Assembly (NCBI RefSeq): GCF_002197845.1
Contig: NZ_NIDE01000019.1
Coordinates: forward strand, 1 to 64,000
Source of the DNA: Fimbriiglobus ruber
Lineage (GTDB): Bacteria; Planctomycetota; Planctomycetia; Gemmatales; Gemmataceae
Reading direction: 5' to 3'
DNA length: 64,000 nt
The notes beneath the pieces were generated by a model. That model was not told where the DNA came from and searched no databases. It saw only the letters and a program-made list of their open reading frames with translations. Position 1 is the stretch's first letter, and each line of letters begins with the position of its first letter. The position numbers and the translations under genes were made by a program. Positions 14,350 through 34,931 of the stretch are shown piece after piece.

Positions 14350-14360
14350 TACTCAGGTCG

Positions 14361-14735
14361 TCGGCAGTCGGGGTGCTGGGGATTCCAGGGAGGACGTCTT
14401 GGGGCTCGGCCCCAAACCCCGCTGGAGGGCCGTGAGCCGTCCAGACCTCCCTGCTTGCTCCCGATCAGGGGGTCGATCCCAAAGCGGATCGACCCCCTGA
14501 TCGCTCGCAGGGGCCTGGGTTGATTGCGGCGGGATGATATCGACTGTTCGCGAGCCAATACCGGCAGTCCCACGAGCAGTCAACGGCCGATAAACGGTCC
14601 CGCGAGCGATCAGTAGGTCGATCCGCTTTGGGATCGACCTACTGATCGGGAGCAAGTAGGGAGGTCCGGAGGGGTTCGACCCCTCCGGCGGGGTTTGGGG
14701 CCGAGCCCCAAGACTTCACCCCACAAAAACCGTCC
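14361..14735. repeat. Structured intergenic element, copy A
   Basis: The element is a large inverted repeat whose arms each hold smaller hairpins. From left to right: TTGGGGC/GCCCCAA near 14399, an imperfect hairpin near 14423, hairpin A1 (14463-14479 with 14486-14502, 17 bp, loop CAAAGC), a divergent centre, hairpin A2 (14608-14624 with 14631-14647, 17 bp, loop GCTTTG), a GGAGGGG/CCCCTCC hairpin near 14670, and GGGGC/GCCCC near 14697. A second copy lies at 34369-34755. No protein is encoded. It fills the whole gap between the SMP-30 gene and the broken oxidoreductase gene. Confidence 0.85.
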
Positions 14736-15422
14736 AAGTGACCAGGCACCGGCAACCGGCAGCCGCAAAAGGCTTGAAATCCCGGGGCAACGGGTGACAA
14801 TCATCACCGGCCGTCATTTCTTACACTCACCAGGAACCTCTCTCATGGACCGCCGTTCGTTTCTCCAGACGTCCGGGGCCGGGCTGGCCCTGTCGGCATT
14901 CCCCGTTTCGGCCCGCGGTGCGGAACCGGGAGCCAAGCCACTGCGGGTCGGGCTGATCGGGTGCGGCTGGTACGGCAAGTGCGACCTGTTCCGGCTTCTC
15001 CAGGTTGCACCAGTGGAAGTCGTCTCCCTGTGCGACGTGGACAAGAACATGCTCGCGGACGCGGCCGAACAGGTGTCCGGGAAGCAGGTGTCGAAGAAGA
15101 AACCGCGGATTTACGGCGACTACCGCGACATGCTCAAGGAAAAAGATTTGGACGTGGTCATGGTTGAAACACCCGACCACTGGCACGCGCTGCCGATGAT
15201 CGCGGCGTGCGAGGCCGGGGCGGACGTCTGGGTACAGAAGCCGATCAGCGTGGACGTGGTCGAAGGTCAGGCGATGGTCGTGGCCGCCCGCAAGCACAAT
15301 AAGGTCGTCCAGTCGTCACCCAGCGGCGGAGTACCCCGCACCTGGCCGAGGCCAAGCGGGAATTTCTCGACACGGGCAAACTCGGCAAGATCGGCCTGGT
15401 CGAGACCTACTGCTACTATACT

Positions 15423-15989
15423 TTACGCGTCCAGGAGTGACACATTGTCCCACGTCTGGAATTTGTGGGTCATCAGGGTCGCCAGTTTCTCTCGGTGTTT
15501 CGTCGGCAGATCCGCCAAGCAATGGTCGATGGCCTCCTGGAACTTCTTGAAGTCCTGATGGTGGCGGCTGTTCAACGCCTCCTTCTTCACGAACTTCCAG
15601 AGTCGCTCGATCAAGTTCAGGTTCGGCGAATACGACGGCAGGAACAACAACTCGATCCCGAGTGCCTTGGCCGTGTGCTCCACCAGCGCGCACCGCTGGT
15701 AGCGGGCGTTGTCGAGTACCAGCGTGATCGGCAATGACCCACCGAGGGCCGCGATCTTGCGGAGCAACGCACACACCGAGGTGGCCGTGATGTACGTCGT
15801 GTTGATTTCTGTCACCAGCTCGTGCGTGACCGCGTTCAGCGCACCCAGCACGTTGTACCTCTGCCGTCCCGACGCGGCCCGGACATGTAACCGGACGAAG
15901 CACCACACCCACCCCAGGAACGACGCCAAGACGAAGTGCGACGCGTCCACGAAGTACACCGTCCGCTTACCGTCGCGGGCTTCCGCCAA
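15423..15989 (-). CDS. IS630 transposase, catalytic DDE frame (OrfB)
   Basis: The frame carries the RNase H-fold DDE_3 domain: VYFVDASHF (first Asp), LVLDNARYQ (second Asp) and YSPNLNLIERLWKF (Glu), with the expected spacing between the second Asp and the Glu. The first possible start is a TTG at 15989, lacking a ribosome-binding site, and the family-like sequence KTELEPKLAEARD extends upstream of it to the slippery run near 16010. It is therefore most likely made only as a +1 frameshift or transcript-slippage fusion with OrfA. Confidence 0.88.
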   Translation of the reverse strand: MAEARDGKRTVYFVDASHFVLASFLGWVWCFVRLHVRAASGRQRYNVLGALNAVTHELVTEINTTYITATSVCALLRKIAALGGSLPITLVLDNARYQRCALVEHTAKALGIELLFLPSYSPNLNLIERLWKFVKKEALNSRHHQDFKKFQEAIDHCLADLPTKHREKLATLMTHKFQTWDNVSLLDA

Positions 15990-16491
15990 CTTCGGTTCCA
16001 GTTCCGTCTTTTAAAAAATCCGCCTGCGTGCGGGCGTGTTCGTCGACCGTTTTCTTGGGCGGCACCGGGATGGGTGCCACCTTCAGGCATTTCATCCCCA
16101 GATCCTCTTTCAAGAACTGGCGCACCCGCGACGCCTTGCGTCGGACGCCCGTCAGGTCCTCGATCCGCCGCGCCGCCTCGTGGGCCGTGTGCGGCGGGTG
16201 CCGGCGAAACGCGTCTTCGATCGTCCCGTGATGCGGTGTCAGCGCACTGGGTTGGCCCTTCCAGCCGAACGATCGGACCCCATCCAGACCCTTCGCCGCA
16301 TAGATCCGCAGGGTCCGCTGCACCGTGGAGCGCGACACGTTGGCCAACTCCGCGATCCGACTGTGCGTCACGTTCCGGGTCTTGAGCCAGAGAATCTCCA
16401 TCCGCTCTTGGACACGCGGGTCCGGGTGCCGATAGCGCGCGTCCGCGATCGCTTGGACCACGGGTTCGGGAAACGAATATTGGGGACGCAT
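15967..16491 (-). CDS. IS630 transposase, N-terminal DNA-binding frame (OrfA)
   Basis: This 174-residue frame begins at the ATG at 16491. It has the helix-turn-helix HSRIAELANVSRSTVQRTLR (about residues 42-61) and a second winged-helix segment (HTAHEAARRIEDLTGVRRKASRVRQFLKEDLGMK), the usual paired DNA-binding domains of IS630 transposases. It stops shortly after TQADFLK, where the catalytic part continues in a different frame. A slippery run, TTTTTTAAAAG on the minus strand (near 16004-16014), lies exactly at the junction; skipping one A would fuse DFLK to TELEPKLAEARDGK. The residues after DFLK in this frame do not resemble the family. Confidence 0.88.
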   Translation of the reverse strand: MRPQYSFPEPVVQAIADARYRHPDPRVQERMEILWLKTRNVTHSRIAELANVSRSTVQRTLRIYAAKGLDGVRSFGWKGQPSALTPHHGTIEDAFRRHPPHTAHEAARRIEDLTGVRRKASRVRQFLKEDLGMKCLKVAPIPVPPKKTVDEHARTQADFLKDGTGTEVGGSPRR

Positions 16492-34293: not shown

Positions 34294-34368
34294 ATTTTGT
34301 TCCCGCAATGCACTTGCTTCTTTGGTTGCCGGAGGAGCTTGCCCTCTGTCCAGCAATCGAAGGGGTCG

Positions 34369-34755
34369 TCAACAGTCGGGTGTCTGGGGATTTTAGGGAG
34401 GGCGTCTTGGGCTCGGCCCCAAACCCCCGCCGGAGGGGTAGGACCCCTCCGGACCTCCCCACTTGCTCCCGACCCGCGGACTCATCCCAGAGCGGATGAG
34501 TCCGCGGGTCGCTCGCAGGGATCTGGGTTGACTGCGGCGGGAAGAAATCGACTCCTCGCGGGCTAGGAAGACATCGAATCGACTGTTCGCTCGATTCGAG
34601 TTTGAGCAACAAACGGCCCCTGCGAGCGATCAGTGGTCGATCCGCTTTGGGATCGACCACTGATCGGGAGCATGTGGGGAGGTCCGGAGGGGTCCTACCC
34701 CTCCGGCGGGGGTTTGGGGCCGAGCCCCAAGACCTCATCCCACAAAAACCGTCCC
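34369..34755. repeat. Structured intergenic element, copy B
   Basis: This is the second copy of the element at 14361-14735. It has the same order of parts: TTGGG/CCCCAA near 34408, CCGGAGGGG/CCCCTCCGG near 34430, hairpin B1 (34471-34487 with 34494-34510, 17 bp, loop CAGAGC), a divergent centre, hairpin B2 (34628-34643 with 34650-34665, 16 bp, loop GCTTTG), a CCGGAGGGG/CCCCTCCGG hairpin near 34688 and GGGGC/GCCCC near 34717, and it ends in CCCACAAAAACCGTCC like copy A. The B1 stem differs from A1 at many positions, always with matching changes on the other side. It fills the gap between the DUF1501 and DUF1549 genes. Confidence 0.88.
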
Positions 34756-34931
34756 GAGGACCAAGGACTAGGCGCCGGCAGCCGACACCGACAACACGAT
34801 TTTGGTTGCCGTCGGTCTGGATGTCGTTTCTGCAGTAGCGTGTTATAATGTGTTACGTGCCTTCCCGAAGATAGATTTCCTACTCGCGATGCCCGTGCAT
34901 CCCGCCTTCCCCTTTCTCGTCTGGGGAGTTA

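What the first reader, a model, noticed from the sequence alone, without database searches (positions are those of the whole stretch)
14361..14735. Dispersed element whose hairpins co-vary perfectly (copy A, with copy B at 34369-34755)
Seen in sequence: the two copies share the same plan and ends but their inner hairpins differ. A1 is GATCAGGGGGTCGATCC, A2 is GATCAGTAGGTCGATCC, B1 is GACCCGCGGACTCATCC and B2 is GATCAGTGGTCGATCC. Every stem is perfectly self-complementary, so almost every difference is matched by a compensating change on the other side. The loops (CAAAGC, CAGAGC, GCTTTG) are conserved in an inverted sense: the left and right halves of each element are also inverted copies of each other. 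Inference: structure, not sequence, is being maintained, either by selection on a folded RNA or single-stranded DNA, or by hairpin-templated correction during replication. It could be a non-autonomous mobile element, a recombination site or a structured RNA. I know of no named family with this plan.
Basis: partly seen in the sequence, partly recalled or inferred. Interest (0 to 1): 0.78.

Follow-up and report, generated by a model that had tools for sequence, protein, structure and literature searches.

The report
Mobile nested-hairpin DNA repeat family
The two repeats belong to a family of about 34 small mobile DNA pieces scattered through this planctomycete genome, built of hairpins inside a larger inverted repeat, whose hairpins stay perfectly matched while their sequence changes, most likely because one side of a hairpin is copied from the other during DNA replication.

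Summary
Copies A and B are two of 34 two-armed elements, plus three single arms, in this 12.4-Mb Gemmataceae genome. A covariance model and a core pattern find none in 94 other Gemmataceae. Each arm holds three hairpins: HP1 (nearly invariant), HP2 and HP3 (18 bp, loop CARAGC). HP3 stems co-vary at 12 of 18 pairs, with up to four Watson-Crick types per pair, and 98.7% of its cells pair.

The elements are mobile. Complete copies end at a fixed Y end and are flanked by 8-12 bp direct repeats (permutation p<5e-5); copy B has a perfect 11-bp one. They lie between genes, and 16 of 17 placed co-directionally have the same orientation.

Pairing is probably kept by copying within the DNA hairpin rather than by selection on an RNA. 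Flanks are copied across to lengthen stems, one loop is inverted, arms match within elements but differ between them, cores have flipped, and mismatches show no G-U bias. This step is inferred.

No transposase with these ends was found. HP1 with a variable HP2 also occurs in scattered genomes of many phyla, so this looks like one branch of a wide family of palindromic repeats. New variant of a known kind; mover and function open.

The parts
14356..14396 (-). Copy A: outer Y end, truncated (41 of 73 nt)
   Evidence: search with the Y-end consensus; flanks
14395..14508 (+). Copy A: left arm (HP1, HP2, HP3)
   Evidence: covariance model R1, E 1.5e-20
14399..14415 (+). Copy A: HP1, TTGGGGC-TCG-GCCCCAA
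14422..14444 (+). Copy A: HP2 (CTGGAGGG type)
14462..14503 (+). Copy A: HP3, 18-bp perfect stem of alpha class, loop CAAAGC
14512..14598 (.). Copy A: variable centre with the AATCAACCCAGGCCCCTGCGAGC motif (here reversed)
14602..14715 (-). Copy A: right arm, inverted
   Evidence: covariance model R1, E 4.9e-23
14607..14648 (-). Copy A: HP3 of the right arm, 18-bp perfect stem of alpha class, loop GCTTTG on the + strand
14712..14758 (-). Copy A: outer X end
   Evidence: search with the X-end consensus
34321..34331 (+). Copy B: target-site duplication TTTGGTTGCCG, left
34332..34404 (-). Copy B: outer Y end, complete
34403..34516 (+). Copy B: left arm
   Evidence: covariance model R1, E 7.7e-19
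34407..34422 (+). Copy B: HP1, one G lost
34430..34452 (+). Copy B: HP2, identical to HP2 of the right arm read inverted
34470..34511 (+). Copy B: HP3 of beta class, loop CAGAGC
34512..34626 (.). Copy B: variable centre
34622..34734 (-). Copy B: right arm, inverted
   Evidence: covariance model R1, E 1.7e-19
34627..34666 (-). Copy B: HP3 of alpha class, 17-bp stem, loop GCTTTG on the + strand
34731..34800 (-). Copy B: outer X end
34801..34811 (+). Copy B: target-site duplication TTTGGTTGCCG, right

Best explanation
The element is a non-autonomous mobile DNA element of about 470 bp with one fixed end (Y), a less fixed end (X) and two inverted arms of three hairpins each. It spread to 34 places in this genome by a DNA insertion that duplicated about 10-11 bp of target; this is shown by the duplications. 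The enzyme acted in trans and is unknown. The hairpins stay perfectly paired while their sequence drifts because, when a hairpin or cruciform forms during replication, the polymerase copies one arm from the other, or the arms recombine; this fixes both sides in one event and now and then lengthens the stem, inverts the loop or flips the core. This last step is inferred from its traces. Selection by the mobilising enzyme for a foldable end may add to it.
For: Mobility: dispersed copies. Direct repeats start at the Y terminus (CGGCAACCAAA, CCAGAGGCGA, CCCCGCCCGC, CAACAGGTCGGG, CGGGGAGACCG, ACTGTTCC); summed match 113 against a permutation mean of 73.1, maximum 99 in 20,000. Absent from 94 other Gemmataceae. 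Templated pairing: 12 of 18 HP3 pairs have changes on both sides, several with all four Watson-Crick types. In L006L, L007R, L031L and L034L the 3' flank GCTCGC has become GGGAGC, the complement of the 5' flank, with no partly changed form among 64 hairpins; L031L also has its loop inverted. L035L shows the same lengthening with a shortened hairpin. The HP1 loop base is the same in both arms in 29 of 29 elements (48% between elements), and whole HP2 hairpins in 19 of 27 (6%). Both outer ends are alike in L003 and L011. The alpha arm lies next to X in 12 elements and next to Y in 9, so cores have flipped. HP3 half-stems differ by 0.13-0.15 per site between copies, against 0.01-0.02 for the adjacent unpaired linker. 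Mismatches: 0 G-U, 7 A-C of 13. The same type of event is described for RNA genes (PMC8794818).
Against: No transposase gene lies between such ends, and the X and Y ends occur nowhere else in the genome. X and Y are not inverted repeats of each other and X starts at several points, which is unusual for a DNA transposon. No empty site was found. No event was seen directly, only paralogues were compared, and exchange of whole hairpins between copies could mimic part of the pattern. Conserved loop and HP1 show that some sequence selection acts.
Confidence: 0.62

Rival explanations
1. The element encodes a structured RNA or a regulatory leader; selection on the RNA keeps the stems paired.
For: Strong covariation. 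X faces the start of the downstream gene in 16 of 17 co-directional sites, p = 2.7e-4. Almost no copy lies between convergent genes.
Against: No Rfam match. No wobble pairs among the mismatches. Nine copies lie between divergent genes. The centre ranges from about 110 to 750 bp and is unrelated between some copies. Loop bases match between arms, which local stems do not require.
Confidence: 0.17
2. The element is a REPIN-like or TIRYT-like element mobilised by a Y1 (HUH) transposase that recognises folded single-stranded ends.
For: Inverted pairs of hairpins as in REPINs (PMC3116915). The genome has three Y1 transposase genes, all near long nested palindromes.
Against: None of the three lies beside these arms or ends. 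The palindromes there have other sequences. As general knowledge, Y1 transposition of the IS200/IS605 type makes no target-site duplication, but these elements have one. There is no GTAG tag and HP1 lacks the AT start of CGTC repeats (PMC3733652).
Confidence: 0.12
3. The element is a classical MITE of a DDE insertion sequence, and the hairpins are a passive by-product.
For: Duplications of about 10-11 bp and non-coding interior.
Against: The ends are not inverted repeats of each other, no parent was found, and it does not by itself explain the paired changes.
Confidence: 0.3
4. The covariation is chance or an artefact of aligning related palindromes.
For: Perfect hairpins co-vary trivially once they exist.
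Against: All four pair types recur at several columns, and shuffled and slid controls fall far below.
Confidence: 0.02

Closest known systems
REPINs / REP sequences with RAYT transposases
   Same: Small non-coding intergenic elements of two inverted hairpins, many copies per genome, patchy between species (PMC3116915, PMC3733652).
   Different: 470 bp instead of about 100; three hairpins per arm with 17-18 bp perfect HP3 stems; target duplications present; no GTAG tag; no linked RAYT; stems drift by paired changes.
CGTC-tagged REPs
   Same: HP1 is a short palindrome that in many copies follows CGTC; CGTC repeats also lack a known transposase (PMC3733652).
   Different: HP1 has a 7-bp stem starting TT, not AT, and a 3-nt loop; the tag varies (AGTC, TGTC, AGCC).
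Prokaryotic MITEs
   Same: Non-autonomous, non-coding, target-site duplications, intergenic.
   Different: No terminal inverted repeat at the very ends, no parent insertion sequence, nested hairpins.
GC clusters / double-hairpin elements of fungal mitochondria
   Same: Mobile GC-rich palindromes with putative target duplications, merger and shuffling and no known enzyme (PMC4478555, abstract and introduction read); paired stem changes in double-hairpin elements are recalled from memory.
   Different: Those are tens of bp and in mitochondria; no sequence relation was tested.
Template-switch maintained hairpins (PMC8794818)
   Same: Paired changes, loop inversion and simultaneous repair of several mismatches as traces of one event.
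   Different: Described for RNA genes; here in a mobile DNA repeat with stems extended into the flanks.

Membership tests
Prokaryotic MITE / non-autonomous transposon | Target-site duplication at the element's ends | tested here: met
   Direct repeats of 8-12 bp at the Y terminus, p<5e-5 by permutation
Prokaryotic MITE / non-autonomous transposon | Terminal inverted repeats shared with a parent insertion sequence | tested here: not met
   X and Y ends differ and neither occurs elsewhere in the genome; the genome is a draft
Prokaryotic MITE / non-autonomous transposon | No transposase of its own, many dispersed copies | tested here: met
   34 pairs; interior ORFs of two long copies match no Pfam, NCBIfam or PHROGs family
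REPIN (RAYT-mobilised REP pair) | GTAG-tagged short REP hairpins in inverted pairs | tested here: not met
   Inverted hairpin pairs are present but no GTAG tag at HP1
REPIN (RAYT-mobilised REP pair) | Linked Y1 transposase flanked by the same hairpins | tested here: not met
   Three Y1 genes in the genome, none beside these arms or ends
REPIN (RAYT-mobilised REP pair) | Hairpin bound and cut as single strand by the transposase | not testable with these tools
   Needs purified protein
CGTC REP superfamily | CGTC tag, 8-9 bp stem starting AT, 4-5 nt loop | tested here: not met
   HP1 stem 7 bp starting TT, loop 3 nt
Structured non-coding RNA | Match to a described RNA family | tested here: not met
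   Rfam 15, no match in the window
Structured non-coding RNA | Expressed as RNA | not testable with these tools
   No RNA data

The most novel reading that the evidence does not exclude
HP1 followed by HP2 is the signature of an undescribed, horizontally moving superfamily of modular palindromic elements across bacterial phyla, whose secondary structure is inherited by DNA copying within the hairpin rather than by sequence conservation, and which is moved by a system not yet known that makes 10-11 bp target duplications from ends that are not inverted repeats.
Probability: 0.3. Interest if true: 0.82.

Novelty: new variant of a known kind. Interest (0 to 1): 0.6.

Why it matters
Covariation is usually taken as proof of a functional RNA. 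Here is a natural set of about 66 hairpins where the covariation comes with traces of DNA-level copying (flanks copied across, an inverted loop, symmetrised arms, flipped cores), so it is a test bed for how far templated mutation can mimic selection. It also adds a multi-hairpin element with target duplications and no known mover, and a shared HP1-HP2 module that turns up patchily in distant phyla.

Tried and rejected
Rfam scan: no match. Search for an autonomous parent through the X and Y ends: only element copies. Wider contexts of single arms: no distant second arm within about 17 kb. Cargo idea: ORFs in the long copies L035 and L036 match nothing. L034 looks like a deletion derivative of an L036-like copy, from a shared stretch read by eye. 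Plasmid and phage collections: no match. Empty-site search with the gene left of copy A: relatives share the gene but not its neighbour. TPRT-like (retroposition) reading, suggested by the ragged X end and fixed Y end: not pursued, since the X variation falls into a few subfamily starts and no reverse transcriptase was linked. Transcription-terminator reading: dropped because nine copies lie between divergent genes and only one between convergent ones.

Full report
What is there. Copy A (about 14356-14758) and copy B (34332-34800) are two members of one repeat family. Each has an outer Y end, an arm, a variable centre, an inverted arm and an outer X end. An arm runs HP1 (TTGGGGC-TCK-GCCCCAA), ACCCCGC, HP2 (CYGGAGGG...CCCTCCRG), a linker ACCTCC..TGCTCCC, HP3 (18-bp stem, loop CARAGC), GCTCGC. 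All four HP3 stems in the window are perfect, and the single strands fold 18-25 standard deviations better than shuffles.

The family. BLAST with copy A finds 94 matches in the genome. A core pattern finds 63 sites against 1 for the reversed control. A covariance model of the arm finds 71 strong arms: 34 facing pairs and 3 singles. One pair of loci is a 99.97% duplication, so about 33 are independent. None is found in 94 other Gemmataceae by pattern or model. HP1 itself occurs in this genome almost only in these elements and exactly in only one other of 391 further planctomycete genomes.

Covariation. On 38 distinct arms 98.4% of cells pair (shuffled 86.8%; slid 33-56%); the covariation score is 0.323 (shuffled 0.104; slid at most 0.078); HP3 has 12 pairs changed on both sides, several with all four Watson-Crick types. 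Only 13 true mismatches occur in 64 hairpins (after setting aside 17-bp stems and one insertion).

Mobility. Fifteen copies have a Y end that could be placed. The stretch after the Y terminus recurs before the X end in perfect repeats of 8-12 bp in six copies, and with one or two differences in some others; the summed match exceeds all 20,000 permutations. Copy B has TTTGGTTGCCG on both sides. The Y terminus is fixed (..GCCCCTC), while X begins at a few different points. Neither end occurs elsewhere.

Setting. A rough codon-based gene call puts the elements between genes: 21 co-directional, 9 divergent, 1 convergent (the call for the right side of copy A is wrong there, because an insertion sequence breaks that gene, and was corrected to co-directional by hand). 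In 16 of 17 co-directional sites with clear polarity the X end faces the start of the downstream gene. This may mean an insertion preference or a tolerated or useful orientation; the gene calls are approximate.

Why templating rather than RNA selection. (1) In four hairpins the 3' flank GCTCGC reads GGGAGC, the exact complement of the 5' flank, and no partly changed form is seen; one of these also has an inverted loop; a fifth, L035L, has a lengthened stem with a shortened hairpin. (2) Loop bases of HP1 and HP2 agree between arms of one element but not between elements. (3) L003 and L011 have symmetrical outer ends. (4) Cores are flipped relative to the outer ends in about 40% of cases. (5) HP3 half-stems differ by 0.13-0.15 per site between copies while the linker beside them differs by 0.01-0.02; the outer ends differ by about 0.23-0.26 in an alignment that includes some unrelated flank, so the rate is not above that of the ends. 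(6) No wobble mismatch is seen. Points 1-4 fit the events described in PMC8794818 and recombination between arms. Exchange of whole hairpins between copies may contribute. None of this is a direct observation of an event.

The wider family. The 25-nt HP1 string occurs at 117 or more places in the genome collection (the scan hit its limit), in Clostridiales, Synergistaceae, Acetobacteraceae, Streptomyces, Chloroflexi, Lentisphaerae, Desulfovibrio, Sedimentisphaerales and others (several are MAGs whose names may be wrong). At 71 of 119 sites a perfect stem of 6 bp or more starts within 6 nt of it, against 18 of 595 random places, with 36 different stems. At 22 of 94 sites a facing partner lies within 700 nt, giving two-armed elements of a similar plan. 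Common descent is likely for the module but not tested with a tree.

Known kinds. It works like a MITE or REPIN, and like the GC clusters of yeast mitochondria (PMC4478555). It fails defining features of REPINs and CGTC REPs. The genome does hold three Y1 transposase genes near long nested palindromes of other sequence, which is suggestive, but from general knowledge Y1 transposition leaves no target duplication. The papers searched did not describe HP1, but the library misses many subscription journals.

Noticed in passing
15423-16491: A transposase gene of apparent IS630 type, in two overlapping frames on the minus strand, interrupts the Gfo/Idh-type gene that starts at 14845, just downstream of copy A.
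   Followed up: no
L099 and L100 (about 12 similar places in the genome): An integrase-type (ISNCY or IS481-like) transposase gene carries an HP1-like hairpin CTTGGGGGCTCTGCCCCCAAACCCCC near the end of its reading frame.
   Followed up: partly
L222, L224, L226, L228, L230, L232: In another planctomycete genome (G417) the exact HP1 string lies at the 3' end of an IS110-type transposase gene in at least six near-identical copies.
   Followed up: partly
L246, L247, L248: All three Y1 transposase genes of this genome lie next to long palindromes: a 31-bp perfect stem, self-complementary stretches up to 217 nt, and a 402-nt inverted repeat at 91%.
   Followed up: partly
L035 1870-2322 (-) and L036 1815-2303 (+): Two long copies carry unrelated ORFs of 150 and 162 aa between their arms, with no family match; they may be captured genes.
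   Followed up: partly
L002 about 1389-1541 and L015 896-1550: Tandem duplications of the X end: four 45-nt units at L002, one copy of about 330 bp at L015.
   Followed up: no
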